From positions 1 through 31,199 of IMG/VR virus record IMGVR_UViG_3300009183_000251: a DNA stretch of 31,199 nucleotides; one strand, written 5' to 3'. Shown here piece by piece: positions 4,116-13,066 of the stretch. Positions within the stretch are counted from its first letter, which is position 1; each line of letters starts with the position of its first letter. The notes under the pieces were generated by a model that ran no database searches, was not told the origin of the DNA, and saw nothing but the letters and a program-made list of their open reading frames with translations. A program made the position numbers and the translations under genes. This DNA is from a virus.

Positions 4116-4436
4116 TTAAATGCGGAAGCTAGTACCGCAACCACAGCGGTCTTTTTCCAAGGGATTTATAAATTCAAAGCCTTCGTTTAGACCCTGGCGT
4201 ACATAGTCTACTTCTAATCCTTCAAGATATGCAGAACTTTTAGGATCAACTACAACCACAAATCCATCTTGCTCAAAGGCAATATCCTCTGAATTTACAG
4301 TATCAATATATTCCAACACATAAGCAAGTCCAGAACATCCGGTAGTTCTTACACCCAGACGAATACCCATGCCCCGACCACGTTTGTTTAAATTGGCCAC
4401 AATTTTTTTAGCGGCTATTTCAGTCACTGATATCAT
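4116..4436 (-). CDS. iscA: A-type iron-sulfur cluster carrier
   Basis: Small Fe-S carrier of the HesB/IscA family that accepts clusters and delivers them to target enzymes. The 106 residues match the usual family length. The three ligand cysteines are intact: C34 in TTGCSG, and C98 and C100 in the C-terminal CGCGTSF. The internal GIRLGVRTTGCSGLAY and DPKS..YLEG segments are classic. Its ATG overlaps the TAA stop of iscU by one base (TAATG), so the two are cotranscribed and probably translationally coupled. Sequence looks like beta/gammaproteobacterial IscA rather than the shorter HesB-like proteins often seen in cyanophages. IscA, SufA and ErpA cannot be separated with certainty, but the partner iscU favours IscA. 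Confidence 0.9.
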   Translation of the reverse strand: MISVTEIAAKKIVANLNKRGRGMGIRLGVRTTGCSGLAYVLEYIDTVNSEDIAFEQDGFVVVVDPKSSAYLEGLEVDYVRQGLNEGFEFINPLEKDRCGCGTSFRI

Positions 4437-4807
4437 TAGTGTTTGCTTTTGTAATCTGCTACTGCAGCCTTAATAGCGTCTTCCGCAAGGATACTACAAT
4501 GGATCTTAACTGGCGGGAGTGCAAGTTCCTCTGCAATTTGAGAGTTCTTAATTGCTCCGGCCTCGTCCAGCGTTTTGCCCTTGACCCATTCTGTGACAAG
4601 TGAGCTCGAAGCGATCGCCGACCCACAACCATAAGTTTTGAATTTTGCATCTGTTATAATTCCATCTTCAACTCGGATCTGTAATTTCATCACGTCACCG
4701 CAAGCGGGGGCTCCCACCATGCCAGTGCCAACAGTATCATCTATTTCTAATTTTCCAACGTTGCGTGGATTTTCGTAGTGATCAATTACTTTTTCTGAAT
4801 AGGCCAT
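4436..4807 (-). CDS. iscU: Iron-sulfur cluster scaffold protein IscU
   Basis: Scaffold on which IscS builds [2Fe-2S] clusters before transfer to carriers and apo-enzymes. The 123 residues are full length. All functional residues are kept: C36 with D38 (GAPACGD), C61 (TYGCGSA), H103 and C104 (KIHCS). The LPPVK motif (97-101), bound by the chaperone HscA in host systems, is intact, which implies it can plug into the host HscA/HscB machinery. It differs from E. coli IscU mainly by a shortened and divergent loop at residues 19-26. The ATG has an AAAGGAG site and a perfect-spacing sigma70 promoter. No iscS, hscA or fdx is present in the window, so it must rely on host sulfur donors. Confidence 0.95.
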   Translation of the reverse strand: MAYSEKVIDHYENPRNVGKLEIDDTVGTGMVGAPACGDVMKLQIRVEDGIITDAKFKTYGCGSAIASSSLVTEWVKGKTLDEAGAIKNSQIAEELALPPVKIHCSILAEDAIKAAVADYKSKH

Positions 4808-4824
4808 TGTATACTCCTTTGTGT

Positions 4825-4853
4825 ATTATAACATGTTACCAAATTATTTACAA
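4825..4853 (-). promoter_or_regulatory. Sigma70-type promoter of the iscU-iscA operon
   Basis: Minus strand has TTGTAA (4848-4853), 17-base spacer and TATAAT (4825-4830) preceded by TGT. The leader carries AAAGGAG 6-7 bases before the iscU ATG. No obvious IscR-type operator was seen, so expression is likely simply early and host-polymerase driven. Confidence 0.75.
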
Positions 4854-4862
4854 CCGTTTTGA

Positions 4863-5198
4863 TTAAGAACGACGCTTCATTGCCGCTTTGGCATTAGAAT
4901 CTACTACCGCACGGGCTTGGTCCACGCTCATGCCAGTAGCAACCTCTGTGTCACCTTTGAATCGAACCACATTAGAATTTGGTTCCAATGGCTCTAGTAT
5001 GTTGCTCAGTGGTTCTTGACTGATTAGGTCGCCTAAATTGTCTGCGGTAACATTCACTCCTAAACTCTTGGCTAGATCAATAAAAGCTGTTTGACTGATT
5101 TGTTTTTTGGCCGTTTCGTCTTGACTGCGTCCAAGCAAAAACTGGCTTAATGCAGCCAGTCGTTGTGTGTTAGGGTCTGCAACTTCGCGGATTAACAT
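4863..5198 (-). CDS. Conserved phage protein of unknown function with M-x-I-x-E N-terminus
   Basis: A 111-residue soluble, probably helical protein that ends in a basic KAAMKRRS tail. No known domain was recognised. Its N-terminus MLIREVADP shares the pattern M-x-[I/L]-x-E with the genes at 5198, 8014 and 9927, which could be a capsid-targeting tag. The ATG overlaps the TAA of the upstream gene (TAATG), so it belongs to the same late transcript. Probably a virion or head-assembly accessory protein; this is inferred from neighbours only. Confidence 0.7.
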   Translation of the reverse strand: MLIREVADPNTQRLAALSQFLLGRSQDETAKKQISQTAFIDLAKSLGVNVTADNLGDLISQEPLSNILEPLEPNSNVVRFKGDTEVATGMSVDQARAVVDSNAKAAMKRRS

Positions 5199-6046
5199 TA
5201 TCTACGTTCACGTCCTAGACCAGCGGGTTCAATATTGGCATCCATTTCTGCATCAATATCTTCTTCACCGTTGACGGTTGGAATTTCAGCATCAATAGCA
5301 ACTTCCTCTTGACCTGGCACAGGTGGTGCAGGTTCTTCACCTGGAACAGTAGGAGCTTGCCCAGTTACTACGCCCAATGCCTGCTCCAGTTGAGTCTTGG
5401 CGCCTTGCAAATTTTGTAACAGTCCAGCCAATGCAGCTGTAGCGTCTGTGTTAAACTGCATGGCTTGATCAACCCCAACTTCGTTCTTGATCTGGTCAAC
5501 CAAGGCTGGTAAATCTTTAAACTGCATGGCACTGATTTGTTCACTCATTTTTTGCACTTGGTCAACCATGTCTTGACTGGCCAACACAACTTGAGCCTGC
5601 TGAACTTCGCTAGCTTCGCGCAATCGACGAGCAATTTTGCTTTCTGCCATGGCCATCATTGTAGGATCGTTCATTTGTTTTTGCAATTGGGCAATTTCTT
5701 CTTGTTTGGCTCGGATAGTGTCTTGTATTTGCTTTTTCTTTTGTTGAACCTGGGCGGCCATCAAGGCTTGTTGTTGTTGAGGATTAGCAGCGGGTTGACC
5801 TGCAACAGCTTGAGTGGCTAGAGCCTGCTCTAACATTACCAATTTAAGATATGCTGGGTTACGTTCACTTTGATGGAACTCAGGAGTGCGACGGTGTTCG
5901 CTGATCAATGAGCGTACACGGTTTAATAGGCCTTGAGCTTGGCGGCGAGAAATAGTATCAAATTTGATACTGGTTCCAAAATAGCTTTCAAAAACCTTAG
6001 CGGCTTGTTTTGTTGGGTTGGCTACGGCCAGTTCTTGCAGTTTCAT
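5198..6046 (-). CDS. Coiled-coil protein, putative virion/head-associated
   Basis: A 282-residue protein of unknown function. Residues 1-75 form a conserved-looking N-terminal part (FDTISRRQAQGLLNRVRSL). Residues 85-135 are a Gln/Lys-rich coiled coil, and residues 135-225 are helical (VLASQDMVDQVQKMSEQIS). The last 55 residues are acidic and Pro/Glu-rich, low in order. I recall similar proteins annotated as structural or hypothetical in marine T4-like phages, but cannot verify that here. The start overlaps the preceding gene by 50 bases; it is supported by an AAAGGGA site 7 bases upstream and a late promoter at 6070-6077. The N-terminus MKLQEL has the M-x-[I/L]-x-E pattern. A scaffold-like role is possible. 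Confidence 0.7.
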   Translation of the reverse strand: MKLQELAVANPTKQAAKVFESYFGTSIKFDTISRRQAQGLLNRVRSLISEHRRTPEFHQSERNPAYLKLVMLEQALATQAVAGQPAANPQQQQALMAAQVQQKKKQIQDTIRAKQEEIAQLQKQMNDPTMMAMAESKIARRLREASEVQQAQVVLASQDMVDQVQKMSEQISAMQFKDLPALVDQIKNEVGVDQAMQFNTDATAALAGLLQNLQGAKTQLEQALGVVTGQAPTVPGEEPAPPVPGQEEVAIDAEIPTVNGEEDIDAEMDANIEPAGLGRERR

Positions 6047-8013: not shown

Positions 8014-9927
8014 TTAGGCTGGTTGTTTTGAGTTGTTTATTTCGCGATTGGCCGCTGTAAATCCACCGGCTAAGCGGTTAACAGCCTTGGCCATGCCGGC
8101 TCCTGTGGCCATTACCCAGCCTTCTTGACCCGGATGTTGTAGATCCAATTGATTTAAAATATCCATCTTGATATCGTGTAGCAAGACCCAGGCTGTAAAT
8201 GCCGCGGCCATGCCATCTAAATTGCTACGTGGGCTTTGGATATATTCTACAATGTTGTTGAACTTTTTAGGGGTAACGTGTTGTTGGAGCCATGGTCCAA
8301 ACTGCGCCAATAAATTATCAAACCCAGTGCCTACTCTACTATTAATATAGTCTATACATAATCGAGGCAAATCAGTGATTTGTAATGCACGAAGATCTGT
8401 AGGATCAAACAGCTGATCAATTGCAGCACCTTGACTGTTGTACACATCTTTAACTTGCTGTACTAGCTGACGATTTGGTCGTACATTTTCTTTGGCATAC
8501 ACCGGCTCTAATAGCAGTAGTCCAGGAACCTGTTTAAAATCAACACGGCCAATAGGCTCTTTAGGAGAACCAGGTTCTGCATACCGTGTGTGCATGGCAA
8601 TACCAACTTTGCTATTGGTAATACGTTGACCTACATCGCTTGCCACTGGAATTTTATATTCTACAGTGTTGGGTGTAAACACAAAATTACCGGCTTGTTC
8701 AGGAGGACGCTGTGTGTACAACAGGTCGCCTTGCACATATCCTTTAAAATCTTTAGGAACAGCAGATTCTAACATGGGCCATAATTGAACATACAAAGGC
8801 AACAGTGTTTCAACGCGAGTAGCTGGTCGGCCTTGTGCTTCAGCATCACGATCACGCTGTTCCAAATGTCTTGCCACTTGTCGTGGACTTGTAAACAGAC
8901 CATTATATCCTCGAGCTGTAAATCCTGATACATCAGTAAGAACAAATGTTCCCTCTGGATCACGACCAAATACTAGAGCAGGTTTGCCATCCCACTTGAC
9001 TGTGGTGGTTTTGCCTGTGTCAGCTGAGGTATGTTTGACAATGTCTAGAGCTTTTTTAATACCTGCACTGCCGCTACGGAACACAAGATCTTCTAAGTGT
9101 TCGATGCCTTTGGCACGGCCGCCTTGAACCTCGGCTTCAACAATGACCTGCATGCCTTGATTCACAATACGATCACGTAGTTTGGCTAAGAAGTTTACAT
9201 CACTAACCGGTTGATATAGTTCTGCACTTTCAAGGAATGGCAGGCCTTCGCGTTCCATGTGTTGTTTAAAGTCTGCTAATTTAGCGTCACGGTTGGGATC
9301 TGTGCTAAGTGCTTGTAGAATTGTTTCTACACTGGCCAAGTCTTGACGTGTAGCTGTTTTATTCAATAATAATTTGGCTACAGCATCTGGATTGTCAGTA
9401 ATAATTTTGTTGGTGGCACGATCAGCAATTCCAGCAATTTGATTCAATTTGTAACCCATGCTTTTGGCAACTGAATTCATTAGCACATTGCGCTCACGAC
9501 CTTTGTACTTTGAATCTGTGGGCATGGCACCAAGTACAAATTTGCTCCAAGGTATGTTGTTTAAAAACATAAAGTCTGTTTGCACATACCCTAGGTCTGG
9601 ACGACCGTTGATAGGTGTTTTAAAATGTACGCCAGCGCCGGTTTGTTTGACCCAGTCTTCGGGTTTTTGTTTTTGGCTGGTTGCCCAGCGTGTTAATTGT
9701 GCTATTAATTGTTCTTTGGTTAATTGTTTGGCGTCAACAGCAATATCCAAATCGCCTGAGGTGTCTTTAATGCCGGTTGATCCCAGGGTGTTGTTTTGTA
9801 GGTCAAGTCCTGGCAACATTTGCTCAAGCCATGCTAGGGTTGTTTTTACGTCAGTCTGATTAATGCGTTGGGTTAACGCACGGCCGTTGCCGTCTTTGAA
9901 CACATTACCGCCTTCAAGTATGTTCAT
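8014..9927 (-). CDS. Large phage protein with Pol-beta-type and ligase-type nucleotidyltransferase-like regions (DUF6267-like)
   Basis: A 637-residue protein. Residues 49-65 read GS(9)DLDIAVD (G49-S50, D59, D61) with a third carboxylate at D118 (YVQTDFMF): the GSx(n)DxD...D layout of Pol-beta-like nucleotidyltransferases. Residues 277-450 resemble the unknown-function family DUF6267 of T4-like phages and carry KWDG (311-314), like motif I of ATP-dependent ligases, then VQGDLLY (398-404), VEYK (422-425) and SKVGIAMHT (439-447), which could be later ligase motifs. The C-terminal 150 residues are helical. The ATG overlaps the upstream TAA (TAATG). The N-terminus MNILE fits the M-x-[I/L]-x-E pattern. 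Activity is unproven: the motifs are seen, the fold is inferred, the substrate is unknown. Confidence 0.7.
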   Translation of the reverse strand: MNILEGGNVFKDGNGRALTQRINQTDVKTTLAWLEQMLPGLDLQNNTLGSTGIKDTSGDLDIAVDAKQLTKEQLIAQLTRWATSQKQKPEDWVKQTGAGVHFKTPINGRPDLGYVQTDFMFLNNIPWSKFVLGAMPTDSKYKGRERNVLMNSVAKSMGYKLNQIAGIADRATNKIITDNPDAVAKLLLNKTATRQDLASVETILQALSTDPNRDAKLADFKQHMEREGLPFLESAELYQPVSDVNFLAKLRDRIVNQGMQVIVEAEVQGGRAKGIEHLEDLVFRSGSAGIKKALDIVKHTSADTGKTTTVKWDGKPALVFGRDPEGTFVLTDVSGFTARGYNGLFTSPRQVARHLEQRDRDAEAQGRPATRVETLLPLYVQLWPMLESAVPKDFKGYVQGDLLYTQRPPEQAGNFVFTPNTVEYKIPVASDVGQRITNSKVGIAMHTRYAEPGSPKEPIGRVDFKQVPGLLLLEPVYAKENVRPNRQLVQQVKDVYNSQGAAIDQLFDPTDLRALQITDLPRLCIDYINSRVGTGFDNLLAQFGPWLQQHVTPKKFNNIVEYIQSPRSNLDGMAAAFTAWVLLHDIKMDILNQLDLQHPGQEGWVMATGAGMAKAVNRLAGGFTAANREINNSKQPA

Positions 9928-11114
9928 TAGAGACCCTGAAAACCCATTAGTAGTAACAATCCATCCGCCGCAGGGTTGCCTGTTGATTTTACTTGTTTAG
10001 TGCCAGTTAGTTTTGCCGCTGTTGCGCCAAGTGCCGGTAGGCCTTTAGCAATTGCTGGATCCAGTTGTTGTTTTAATGTTTGTGCCATTCCTTCTGCATC
10101 TTGAGTGCTGCCCTGAGTACCACCCGGTGCAATAGTTGACTGACCGGTGGCATTGCCGTTGCCTGCGCCCGGAGCTGATGTTTGTGCCAATCCTGCCTGT
10201 TGAACCAATTGTTTAAATAATTCTTTTTCGTTGGTCGGTGCAACAGCAGGTGCAGGTGCTGCTGGTGTTGCAGGTGCGGGGGTCGCCGGTGGTTTAGCAG
10301 TTGCTGGTGTTGCAGGTGTAGGTTGACCAGCAACCGGTGCTGGTGCGTTTCTTTGCGCCGATCTTGCTGCCAATCCGCCAACAGGTCGTGCTGTGGGTTT
10401 TACAGTAGGGATTGCTTCTTCAAGATCCGATGTCATTCCTTGTATTCCACCTTTTGGTTTACCATATGCCTTTATTGTATTTTTTCCTTTAGGACTGTTG
10501 GCAACACTGGCAGGCATCTGTCCAGGTTTTGCTGGTGCAGTGGCAGAAGGAACTCTACCAAATGTTGCCGCAGGTTTCTGTCCTTGCACTTGTTGTTGTA
10601 GAGCTGTTGCTTGTTGCAATGGTGTTTGTTGTGGCTGATTAGGATTGCCTGATTTAGCTACATTAGTTTTACTAATTGGGGCCGTGGCCGCGCCGGCACT
10701 TGCGGTATTAGTTTGTGTTGCAGGCGGTTGTTGTGCAGGTGCCCCACTATTGCTTATTTGTTTGACCAGACTGACAATTTTATCTTTGTTAATAACATTT
10801 GGCAAATACATACCACCAAGTAAATTTTTGTTTACAAATGCTAATAATGCTTGTTCAAGTTGCCCGTTTGCACGGGCATTTGGATTGGTTCTTAGCAACT
10901 GTCTTTCATATTTTTTCCATATAGGATAGGCCTTATTAAACAGCTCACCAGTTTTACGATCTGCAGATGCATCTTGATAAGCACCTTTAAAATTTGAAAC
11001 AGCACCGCCTACTTTTTGAGCGGCTCCCTTGGCTTTGTTTGCAATCCATTCAGAAGGAAGTGTAACTTCTTCTAGTTCAAATTGTTTCTTTTTTGTTAGT
11101 TCATGAATTTGCAT
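9927..11114 (-). CDS. Low-complexity Pro/Ala/Gln-rich phage protein
   Basis: A 395-residue protein of unknown function. Residues 1-125 look folded and helical (KAYPIWKKYERQLLR; LEQALLAFVNKNLLGGMYLP). Residues 125-345 are disordered, built from repeated PA, AP, PAT and QQ runs. A short ordered end follows (PAADGLLLLMGFQGL). The N-terminus MQIHEL matches the M-x-[I/L]-x-E pattern of three neighbours and is followed by a second LEE at 13-15. It starts 14 bases inside the preceding gene and ends TAATG-coupled to the nucleotidyltransferase-like gene. Tethering or internal head protein roles are possible; no enzyme motif is visible. Confidence 0.65.
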   Translation of the reverse strand: MQIHELTKKKQFELEEVTLPSEWIANKAKGAAQKVGGAVSNFKGAYQDASADRKTGELFNKAYPIWKKYERQLLRTNPNARANGQLEQALLAFVNKNLLGGMYLPNVINKDKIVSLVKQISNSGAPAQQPPATQTNTASAGAATAPISKTNVAKSGNPNQPQQTPLQQATALQQQVQGQKPAATFGRVPSATAPAKPGQMPASVANSPKGKNTIKAYGKPKGGIQGMTSDLEEAIPTVKPTARPVGGLAARSAQRNAPAPVAGQPTPATPATAKPPATPAPATPAAPAPAVAPTNEKELFKQLVQQAGLAQTSAPGAGNGNATGQSTIAPGGTQGSTQDAEGMAQTLKQQLDPAIAKGLPALGATAAKLTGTKQVKSTGNPAADGLLLLMGFQGL

Positions 11115-11349
11115 CTGTGCGTCTCACTGTGCGTGTAAATTTGCCTGGGTCACGCTGATTAATAGCGTTGAGTAATTTTCTCTGTAGATTCTGAGCATCT
11201 TCTACACTGTAACTGGAGTCAATCTGCTCTAGCAAGCGTATAGCACTAGATATAATGTTGGTGGCGCGGTTTTCAATAACATGGCGTTGATCACGCTCAA
11301 CATACATTGAGTCTAATTCTTCCAATAAACTACGTGTTTTCTTTTGCAT
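11101..11349 (-). CDS. Small conserved helical protein of T4-like phages
   Basis: An 82-residue, strongly charged, all-helical protein (TRSLLEELDSMYVERDQ). I recall similar small proteins in marine T4-like phages, always without function. The ATG follows a 16-base predicted leader that begins AAGG; the late promoter lies at 11371-11379. It overlaps the next gene by 14 bases and appears to lead the late run 11349-8014. Putative head or tail accessory; unknown. Confidence 0.65.
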   Translation of the reverse strand: MQKKTRSLLEELDSMYVERDQRHVIENRATNIISSAIRLLEQIDSSYSVEDAQNLQRKLLNAINQRDPGKFTRTVRRTDANS

Positions 11350-11369: not shown

Positions 11370-11933
11370 TTATTTATTCGGTTTTAAATGGTTTGCCCGG
11401 ATCTCTATCAATGGAATTATGCAAGGATGGGCCATAACCCATGCAATAGTATCAGCAATGTGGGTTAACTCTAACCATGTTTCATGCCCCGGAGCATTAT
11501 CGTTTAATCCGCCAGCAATAATGTGTGTGGTCTTAATATTGTTTAATCCATTTAACTGCAAACTACGGTCTTTTAACGCTCTTTTTTGAATTGAATAGGT
11601 GCCATATAGTTTGTCTTTGGCTTTATTATCGTTTATACCTATGTACTCTGCTGTGCTTCCGATATTAATAATGTGACCATAGATTCCAAGTTTAGCCCAC
11701 TCCTCGTGTGTTGTCTCTAATAAAGCTAGTTGACCGTTACCACAGATAAAAGAACTATTAATAAATATGGTGTAGTGAGCAATTTGTTGTCTAAAATGTT
11801 GTTCGCTACCTGGATCCCAAAATCTTAAATCATACCCTGTAGCTCGACTAGCAAACTCCGCAGAAGGAAAACGTTGTTTTACTGCGCTAGCCACTGTCGA
11901 ATGATATGGATTTCCAGAACATAATATATTCAT
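11370..11933 (-). CDS. SDR-like oxidoreductase, divergent
   Basis: Short-chain dehydrogenase/reductase-like protein, 187 residues, shorter than the usual ~250. The catalytic set is recognisable: S93 in NIGSTAEY and Y113-x3-K117 (YSIQK). The nucleotide-binding turn at the N-terminus is degenerate (CSGNPYHSTVASAV, no GxxxGxG), so cofactor binding is uncertain. I start at ATG 11931-11933, not 15 bases earlier, because this ATG overlaps the TGA of the radical SAM gene (ATGA) and has GGAG 9 bases upstream. Coupling to the radical SAM gene suggests a two-step modification of one small molecule or sugar. The substrate is unknown. Confidence 0.6.
   Translation of the reverse strand: MNILCSGNPYHSTVASAVKQRFPSAEFASRATGYDLRFWDPGSEQHFRQQIAHYTIFINSSFICGNGQLALLETTHEEWAKLGIYGHIINIGSTAEYIGINDNKAKDKLYGTYSIQKRALKDRSLQLNGLNNIKTTHIIAGGLNDNAPGHETWLELTHIADTIAWVMAHPCIIPLIEIRANHLKPNK
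11371..11379 (-). promoter_or_regulatory. Late promoter for the 11349-8014 gene run
   Basis: Minus strand GAATAAATA, overlapping the stop codon of the SDR-like gene. The predicted start near 11365 gives a 16-base leader starting AAGG. Confidence 0.5.
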
Positions 11934-13066
11934 AGTAGTTGACTCCATTCTGGAAACACACTTTTATAATCAATTTGACGAATTTGGTCAATTTTTTGAA
12001 TAAGCTCCCAGAACGCCAAGTGTGGAGTATTGTCGATTTCAATCCCGTCTAACAACTTGTGCAATTGCGGATAGTTTGAGAATCTGTCAGATAAAATTTT
12101 CTTTGCAGTAGAATTTAAGTGCACAATATTAAAATCTCCAATAGCACGTTGAAAAATTAAATTTACAGGATCTCCATATCGATTAGTTAAAAAATTAGAT
12201 TGGTACCAATCTACTAATTCTGTTAGATAATATAAATTTAAATAACTCCAAGTACAATTTATGTTAAACATATGATTATGAGGCATATTTTCTTGATACC
12301 ATAATAAATTATTAGTTACCGATTTCCAATCTGCACCAGTTCGTTGATAATTAAATCTATCGCCTACGTCATCGATGCTAAAATATAATTCAATTAACTG
12401 ACATTCTCCCCACAAATTTAATAATTCTTGTGTGGCTTGTTGTGTACCATTGGTATTATAAAATACACGAACATTGTCAAGGCCTTTAACTTTTTTTATT
12501 TCTTTAAGTAAATTAATATGGTTATTGCTCATCAGCGGCTCGCCGCCACCATGAAAGTGCAAAGTTTTTATATTTTTAAGTAATTTTGAATCAAATGTTT
12601 CAAGTTGATTAAATTTTTCATATTTGAATTGATCGATTGTCTTAAGGGGGTAAAGTTTTTGATAGTCAGATACCCACGCTGTACTGTTGTGTGGGCCACA
12701 TATAACACATTTTAAATTGCAAAGATTTCCTACGCTGTAATCTAAACCTTGTGGTGCATTTAAATCAATGTCGGTATCATAATGATAGTTTTCATATAAA
12801 TTTTGGCTGGCTAAGCGACGACTTACTAATCCGTTTTCTTCAGCTTTGTAACAACTAGAACATCCGGGAATAGGAGTATCTGTTTCTACACATCGTTTTA
12901 ATTCTGCACGTTCTGGGCCATTCCAGATGCTATCTAAATCAAATACCTCAGACGTTTTAATATATCCTTTAAAGAAACTGCATGGATTATAACCTAATTG
13001 ACCGTTGTAGGACCATATGGCAAGATTTTTATATATTTCATAACAGAAATATTTCTTGTCTTTCAT
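11930..13066 (-). CDS. Radical SAM protein with N-terminal twitch-like cysteine domain
   Basis: A 378-residue radical SAM enzyme. The [4Fe-4S]/SAM motif is C116-x3-C120-x2-C123 (CNLKCVIC), followed by the SAM-binding GGGEP at 173-177 (FHGGGEPLMS). N-terminal cysteines C8, C29, C69 and C72 (PGCSSC) fit the accessory cluster of twitch-type radical SAM proteins, a family I recall from marine phages and polysaccharide or peptide modification loci. It starts at an ATG overlapping the helicase TGA (ATGA) and ends ATGA-coupled to the SDR-like gene. It needs Fe-S clusters, which links it to the phage iscU-iscA. Substrate unknown; its position inside the replication operon is unusual. Confidence 0.85.
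   Translation of the reverse strand: MKDKKYFCYEIYKNLAIWSYNGQLGYNPCSFFKGYIKTSEVFDLDSIWNGPERAELKRCVETDTPIPGCSSCYKAEENGLVSRRLASQNLYENYHYDTDIDLNAPQGLDYSVGNLCNLKCVICGPHNSTAWVSDYQKLYPLKTIDQFKYEKFNQLETFDSKLLKNIKTLHFHGGGEPLMSNNHINLLKEIKKVKGLDNVRVFYNTNGTQQATQELLNLWGECQLIELYFSIDDVGDRFNYQRTGADWKSVTNNLLWYQENMPHNHMFNINCTWSYLNLYYLTELVDWYQSNFLTNRYGDPVNLIFQRAIGDFNIVHLNSTAKKILSDRFSNYPQLHKLLDGIEIDNTPHLAFWELIQKIDQIRQIDYKSVFPEWSQLL

What the first reader, a model, noticed from the sequence alone, without database searches (positions are those of the whole stretch)
8014..9927. One protein with both Pol-beta-like and ligase-like nucleotidyltransferase signatures
Residues 49-118 show GS...DLD...D, the Pol-beta nucleotidyltransferase layout, while residues 311-447 show KWDG and later segments compatible with an ATP-ligase-type adenylylation site in the DUF6267-like region. 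A fusion of two unrelated nucleotide-transfer folds would be new to me. It could add and seal nucleotides, modify a protein, or act on host tRNA or DNA ends.
Basis: partly seen in the sequence, partly recalled or inferred. Interest (0 to 1): 0.75.

Follow-up and report, generated by a model that had tools for sequence, protein, structure and literature searches.

The report
Phage polymerase-ligase fusion, probably virion-packaged
A gene common in uncultured T4-like phages joins a small repair-polymerase-like domain to an RNA/DNA-ligase-like domain in one protein, and its promoter and leader suggest it is loaded into the phage head, so it may be an injected fill-and-seal repair enzyme.

Summary
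The 637-aa protein (8014-9927, minus strand) has two well-predicted domains joined by a disordered linker. The N-terminal domain matches Pol lambda/beta/mu (palm plus thumb) in structure search, with GS..SGDLD..QTD active-site residues. The C-terminal DUF6267 domain is a ligase-type covalent nucleotidyltransferase: KWDG, GDLLY..PNxxxY, EGWV and KxVNR, with structural matches to RNA ligases. All motifs are kept in every complete copy among 106 distinct fused homologues. The same two modules are separate, neighbouring genes in three jumbo phages. In marine Kyanoviridae the ligase-like module is paired with a different (HIGH-type) nucleotidyltransferase. New here: the operon starts at a conserved T4-type late promoter, 93 of 93 homologues carry an (I/L/V)xE|GG site like T4 head-protease sites, and the most complete relative encodes that protease. 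I read it as a late, probably capsid-packaged enzyme that fills and seals nucleic-acid ends. Substrate and activity are unproven. A Pol X-ligase fusion is already known in Phaeocystis globosa virus (PMC5537341), so the idea is not unprecedented; this is an independent bacteriophage version with a different ligase.

The parts
8014..9927 (-). CDS of the fused protein, 637 aa
   Evidence: 80 best homologous loci, 590 stretches encode a relative
9913..9927 (-). 5-residue leader MNILE ending in a head-protease-like site (I/L)xE|GG (between residues 5 and 6)
   Evidence: 93/93 distinct homologues have [ILV]-x-E directly before GGN, with the middle residue free
9238..9858 (-). Pol X-like palm and thumb domain, residues about 24-230
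   Evidence: AF2 pLDDT mostly >85; Foldseek to Pol lambda/beta/mu/TdT, probability about 1.00
9745..9783 (-). Palm motif G49-S50...S57-G58-D59-L60-D61
   Evidence: G49, S50, G58, D59, D61 invariant in fused and stand-alone homologues
9574..9576 (-). Third catalytic Asp, D118 (VQTDF)
   Evidence: invariant
9112..9228 (-). Low-confidence inter-domain linker, residues about 234-272
   Evidence: pLDDT <50 for 234-248 and 250-272; a short predicted helix overlaps this stretch
8068..9111 (-). DUF6267 ligase-like domain, residues about 273-620
   Evidence: Pfam PF19782; separate AF2 model pLDDT 90, pTM 0.86; fold hits to ligases
8986..8997 (-). Ligase motif I, K311-W-D-G (predicted adenylated lysine)
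   Evidence: invariant in window family and cyanophage DUF6267 proteins
8722..8730 (-). Ligase motif III-like G400-D401-L402, followed by P419-N420...Y424
   Evidence: invariant in window family; G, D, L, N, Y also in cyanophages
8113..8124 (-). Ligase motif IV, E602-G-W-V
   Evidence: E, G, V invariant across A3/A5 alignments
8074..8088 (-). Ligase motif V, K614-x-V-N-R
   Evidence: K, V and R invariant, N invariant or nearly so
9927..11114 (-). Upstream gene, 395 aa, variable body with conserved leader MQIHE(I/L)T...E; TAATG overlap with the fused gene
   Evidence: leader conserved in homologous loci; TAATG overlap
11101..11349 (-). 82-aa gene, first gene of the three-gene unit
   Evidence: 67 matching ORFs in family loci
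11371..11377 (-). T4-type late promoter core ATAAATA, about 28 bases before the 82-aa gene
   Evidence: 42 of 59 distinct upstream regions, shuffle expectation 3.4, mostly at fixed distance 28

Best explanation
The gene encodes a two-domain enzyme made late in infection, whose short leader is probably clipped off by the T4-type head-maturation protease, so the enzyme is probably carried in the phage head and injected with the DNA. The N-terminal domain is a minimal Pol X-like nucleotidyltransferase (palm and thumb only) that would add one or a few nucleotides to a 3' end or gap. The C-terminal domain would take AMP on Lys311 and seal the resulting 5'-phosphate/3'-OH break. Shown here: the two folds (the second less firmly), conservation of both active sites, the fusion, the late promoter element, the protease-like site. 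Inferred: packaging, catalytic activity of both domains, that they act in sequence, and that the substrate is the phage's own DNA (less likely RNA).
For: Fold of N-domain: top 50 PDB hits are all Pol lambda/beta/mu/TdT. Fold of C-domain: best PDB hits are tRNA/RNA ligase adenylyltransferase domains, with DNA ligases including AsfvLIG lower down (weak). In the viral library it matches the PA5oct protein A0A4Y5JUK8 (E 1.2e-5, probability 1.00) and the Atu_ph07 RNA ligase A0A2L0UZB7 (probability 0.93). By phage and length these are the ligase-like genes sitting near stand-alone Pol X-like genes in those phages. All motifs kept in all complete copies. Late promoter element before the operon and before two downstream genes, none before helicase or primase. 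Leader site (I/L/V)xE|GG in 93/93; T4 ipII/ipIII and gp23 show the same (I/L)xE type of site (T4 processing reviewed in PMC5694885); a Peptidase_S77 head protease is encoded on the 344-kb relative. The PA5oct Pol X-like protein is annotated as a structural protein detected by mass spectrometry. A fused Pol X-ligase in Phaeocystis globosa virus does gap filling and sealing in vitro (PMC5537341).
Against: No activity has been measured. The phages already carry a canonical DNA ligase (8 of 10 records), so this domain is not needed for ordinary nick sealing. The C-domain resembles RNA ligases at least as much as DNA ligases. In marine relatives the ligase-like module partners a HIGH-type nucleotidyltransferase (79 of 80 loci), which does not fit a simple DNA gap-filling story. 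The window family's leader is only about 5-8 residues long, shorter than the T4 internal-protein leaders. Lak and Flavobacterium phages carry the Pol X-like gene with no ligase nearby.
Confidence: 0.5

Rival explanations
1. RNA repair: the enzyme restores host or phage tRNA (or other RNA) cut by host anticodon or other nucleases, replacing a lost nucleotide and sealing the break, in the manner of T4 Pnkp/Rnl1 but with a nucleotide-adding domain.
For: C-domain fold hits are headed by tRNA ligases and RNA ligases; the Atu_ph07 neighbour gene scores weakly against Pfam RNA_ligase (E 0.002); Pelagibacter phage HTVC008M has a P-loop kinase gene (Zeta_toxin/AAA_33) two genes after its DUF6267 gene.
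Against: N-domain is closest to DNA polymerases of family X, not to CCA-adding or poly(A) polymerases; no tRNA genes in the window; no 2',3'-phosphatase or cyclic phosphodiesterase domain was found in the protein.
Confidence: 0.22
2. Injected effector that nucleotidylates host proteins: the Pol-beta domain transfers NMP to a host target, as proposed for Pol-beta domains in polyvalent phage proteins; the ligase-like domain assists or is a second modifier.
For: Late promoter and head-protease-like site suggest injection; Pol-beta NTases in injected polyvalent proteins are predicted to modify proteins (PMC5512222).
Against: The predicted thumb and Pol X fold point to a nucleic-acid substrate; repeated pairing with a ligase-type domain with complete motifs favours nucleic-acid ends.
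Confidence: 0.13
3. It works inside the infected cell or the prohead, not after injection: it finishes gaps and nicks in replicated or recombining DNA before or during packaging.
For: Late transcription signal; conserved neighbours upstream are helicase and primase.
Against: The canonical DNA ligase is present; the head-protease-like leader would have no role outside a head.
Confidence: 0.15

Closest known systems
Phaeocystis globosa virus PgVPolX (and CeV homologue), PMC5537341
   Same: [quoted passage not shown] does gap filling then sealing.
   Different: PgVPolX is 1093 aa, has dRP lyase activity and an NAD-dependent ligase; here a minimal palm/thumb and a DUF6267 RNA-ligase-like domain, in tailed phages, with late promoter element and leader site. 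PgVPolX itself was not aligned here.
African swine fever virus Pol X plus ASFV DNA ligase (PMC5330486, PMC6344480, read only as abstracts)
   Same: Minimal Pol X lacking the 8-kDa domain, working with a viral ligase; AsfvLIG appears among the weak fold hits.
   Different: Separate genes; true DNA ligase; different virus group.
Pfam DUF6267 / PHROG 455 proteins of Kyanoviridae (T4-GC 71)
   Same: Homologous C-terminal domain with all ligase motifs.
   Different: About 400 aa without the Pol X-like domain; partnered by a HIGH-type cytidylyltransferase gene, fused to it in S-PM2.
Stand-alone Pol X-like genes of Agrobacterium phage Atu_ph07, Sinorhizobium phage Phosso, Pseudomonas phage PA5oct, Flavobacterium phage immuto, Lak phages
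   Same: Same N-domain with catalytic residues and a similar GGxxF-type start.
   Different: Not fused; a ligase-like gene is adjacent or near only in the first three.
T4 internal proteins (IPII, IPIII) and Alt
   Same: Proposed capsid packaging with an N-terminal (I/L)xE-type site.
   Different: Unrelated bodies; the window leader is shorter and packaging is not shown.

Membership tests
Family X DNA polymerases | Pol beta-type palm with GS...DxD and a third Asp | tested here: met
   G49 S50, D59, D61, D118 invariant
Family X DNA polymerases | Overall palm and thumb fold closest to Pol X | tested here: met
   Foldseek top 50 all Pol lambda/beta/mu/TdT, probability about 1.00, best E 1.3e-3
Family X DNA polymerases | PROSITE-type Pol X signature G-[SG]-[LFY]-x-R-[GE]-x3-[SGCL]-x-D-[LIVM]-D (pattern from memory) | tested here: not met
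   0 of 106 distinct proteins; motif is one residue shorter and lacks the Arg
Family X DNA polymerases | Significant sequence match to a Pol X Pfam model | tested here: not met
   only DNA_pol_B_thumb at E 0.11 in 2 of 19 members
Family X DNA polymerases | Template-directed or terminal nucleotide addition | not testable with these tools
   needs purified protein
ATP-dependent ligase / covalent nucleotidyltransferase superfamily | Motifs I (KxDG), III, IV (EGxV), V (K) in that order | tested here: met
   motif III has Asp in place of the usual Glu
ATP-dependent ligase / covalent nucleotidyltransferase superfamily | Ligase-type fold | tested here: inconclusive
   PDB hits weak though headed by RNA ligases (E 0.03-0.4, probability at most 0.28); BFVD hits to ligase-like phage proteins good (probability 0.82-1.00)
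ATP-dependent ligase / covalent nucleotidyltransferase superfamily | Lysine adenylation and strand joining | not testable with these tools
   needs biochemistry
DUF6267 (PF19782) | Pfam score above the curated cut-off | tested here: met
   105 bits against cut-off 27; all 19 members of A1 match
T4-type processed head-internal (ejection) proteins | N-terminal (I/L)xE cleavage site | tested here: met
   93/93 [ILV]xE|GG, of which 89 [IL]xE
T4-type processed head-internal (ejection) proteins | Late promoter and head protease in the same phage | tested here: inconclusive
   late promoter element conserved; Peptidase_S77 on one relative of 10 partial records, not seen on the 74-kb contig that matches the window, which is a fragment
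T4-type processed head-internal (ejection) proteins | Presence in virions | not testable with these tools
   only indirect: PA5oct homologue annotated as structural by MS

The most novel reading that the evidence does not exclude
Tailed phages have a shared, head-packaged nucleic-acid end-repair kit in which a DUF6267/RNA-ligase-like sealing module is combined with interchangeable nucleotidyltransferases: Pol X-like (fused in this family, neighbouring genes in rhizobial and Pseudomonas jumbo phages) or HIGH-type (neighbouring or fused in Kyanoviridae), and which acts on incoming DNA or RNA at the start of infection.
Probability: 0.35. Interest if true: 0.85.

Novelty: new variant of a known kind. 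Interest (0 to 1): 0.62.

Why it matters
DUF6267 is an unannotated family found in more than 200 marine T4-like cyanophage records, and no paper in the searched library names it. Identifying it as a ligase-type enzyme, and finding it fused to a Pol X-like domain with a late promoter and head-protease site, gives hundreds of environmental phages a concrete, testable function: repair of nucleic-acid ends, perhaps by an injected protein. It also suggests that polymerase-ligase fusions arose separately in phages and in algal giant viruses.

Tried and rejected
Sequence searches of PDB with the protein, the whole family and each half gave nothing convincing; fold search was needed. Profile-profile comparison of the C-domain with three jumbo-phage ligase-like proteins was not significant (hhalign probability 0.8 percent, E 0.068), although it paired KWDG with KLDG and the PNxIxY segment; the link rests on structure. 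A Pol beta-HIGH fusion in Flavobacterium phage immuto_182 was considered as a third pairing, but both Pfam matches are below cut-off (E 0.1 and 0.03), so I do not count it. The idea that this domain replaces the replicative DNA ligase was rejected: a canonical ligase is present. A scan of bacterial genomes found no relative, so no host can be named. Exact TATAAATA is absent from the window and ATAAATA is not enriched overall; only the positional conservation across homologues supports the late promoter.

Full report
Observation. The ORF at 8014-9927 on the minus strand encodes 637 residues. Among 78 homologues from viral metagenome contigs, K311-W-D-G and D118 are invariant in all and G49, S50, G58, D59, D61 in all that reach that far. 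In 148 fused ORFs (106 distinct), the ones lacking a motif are shortened ORFs, almost all cut by contig ends.

Domains. AlphaFold with a 48-sequence alignment gave mean pLDDT 85, two confident domains and a low-confidence linker at about 234-272. In the PDB fold search the top 50 hits were all DNA polymerases of family X (lambda, beta, mu, TdT), probability about 1.00, best E 1.3e-3. The N-domain thus has a Pol X-like palm and thumb, and there is no room before it for an 8-kDa lyase or fingers part. It fails the usual Pol X sequence signature, so I call it Pol X-like, not a certified member.

The C-domain alone modelled well (pLDDT 90, pTM 0.86). Its PDB hits are weak, but the leading ones are tRNA and RNA ligase adenylyltransferase domains, with DNA ligases, including the ASFV ligase, further down. 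In the viral structure library it matched other DUF6267 proteins, then PA5oct A0A4Y5JUK8 (E 1.2e-5), the Atu_ph07 RNA ligase (probability 0.93) and a Lactococcus phage RNA ligase (0.82). The alignment with marine DUF6267 proteins (22-25 percent identity) keeps the ligase motifs in order: K311WDG, G400-D401 with PNxxxY, E602-G-(W/Y/F)-V, K614xVNR.

Module pairing. Stand-alone N-domain homologues occur in jumbo phages. In Phosso and Atu_ph07 the ligase-like gene overlaps the Pol X-like gene; in PA5oct it lies two genes away. These ligase-like genes show EKLDG/EKIDG, EGVV/EGYV and a motif V lysine. Lak phages and Flavobacterium phages have the Pol X-like gene without a ligase nearby. In marine cyanophages 79 of 80 DUF6267 loci have a HIGH-type cytidylyltransferase gene nearby; in S-PM2 the C-terminal part of DUF6267 and that domain are in one ORF. 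In all 146 window-family loci the Pol X-like and ligase-like domains share one ORF, with no HIGH gene close by. The ligase-like module thus has interchangeable nucleotidyltransferase partners.

Expression and packaging. The fused gene overlaps the preceding gene by TAATG. That preceding gene has a variable body but a conserved leader MQIHE(I/L)T...E. The unit begins with an 82-aa gene preceded by AATAAATAATAAAAAGGT. The core ATAAATA is present in 42 of 59 distinct upstream regions against 3.4 expected by shuffling, mostly at 28 bases from the start, while the flanking DNA differs. This is the T4 late promoter type (TATAAATA, from general knowledge). The same element precedes two downstream genes but not helicase or primase. 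Every one of 93 distinct homologues has [ILV]-x-E immediately before GGN, with eleven different residues in the middle position. Cleavage there would expose GGN, matching the N terminus of most stand-alone relatives, which begin MGG. T4 ipII/ipIII (IAE|A) and gp23 (LTE|A) show the same type of site, and the T4 protease removes propeptides from internal proteins (PMC5694885). A Peptidase_S77 is found on the 344-kb relative. Several Kyanoviridae neighbours also start with T4-like leaders, for example MKKFSEIIEA and MRFRQFIIEA. Packaging is therefore likely (I put it at about 0.65) but unproven.

Function. My best reading is a late-made, probably injected enzyme that adds nucleotides at an end or gap and seals the break. 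The Phaeocystis globosa virus Pol X-ligase fusion does this in vitro (PMC5537341). The DNA-versus-RNA question is open: the N-domain favours DNA, the C-domain leans to RNA ligases, and the phages have their own DNA ligase.

Verdict. The fusion type has a precedent in algal giant viruses, but this phage version uses a different ligase-type domain and has packaging signals, and assigning DUF6267 to the ligase-type enzymes appears new within the literature I could search.

Noticed in passing
L282:3923-4981, L283:3890-4975 (genes before DUF6267 in HTVC008M and Melnitz-1): Genes directly before DUF6267 show a D...SLK pattern that by eye resembles PD-(D/E)XK nucleases; no Pfam match.
   Followed up: partly
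L282:6718-7380: A P-loop kinase gene (Zeta_toxin/AAA_33) lies between DUF6267 and the cytidylyltransferase gene in Pelagibacter phage HTVC008M; it could be an end-healing kinase.
   Followed up: no
L085:4908-7631 (immuto_182): A 907-aa protein with weak Pol-beta-like, HIGH-type nucleotidyltransferase and metallopeptidase matches, next to a stand-alone Pol X-like gene.
   Followed up: partly
window 11930-13066 (-): Radical SAM protein gene between the helicase gene and the operon; related genes are present at varying positions or orientation in relatives.
   Followed up: no
window 4116-4807 (-): A NifU-like Fe-S assembly gene next to a small conserved gene that by eye looks like an A-type Fe-S carrier.
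   Followed up: no
L280 around 4501-5478: Lak-B2 phage (read with TAG as Gln) carries a 325-aa Pol X-like protein close to a DHFR-thymidylate synthase-like gene.
   Followed up: partly
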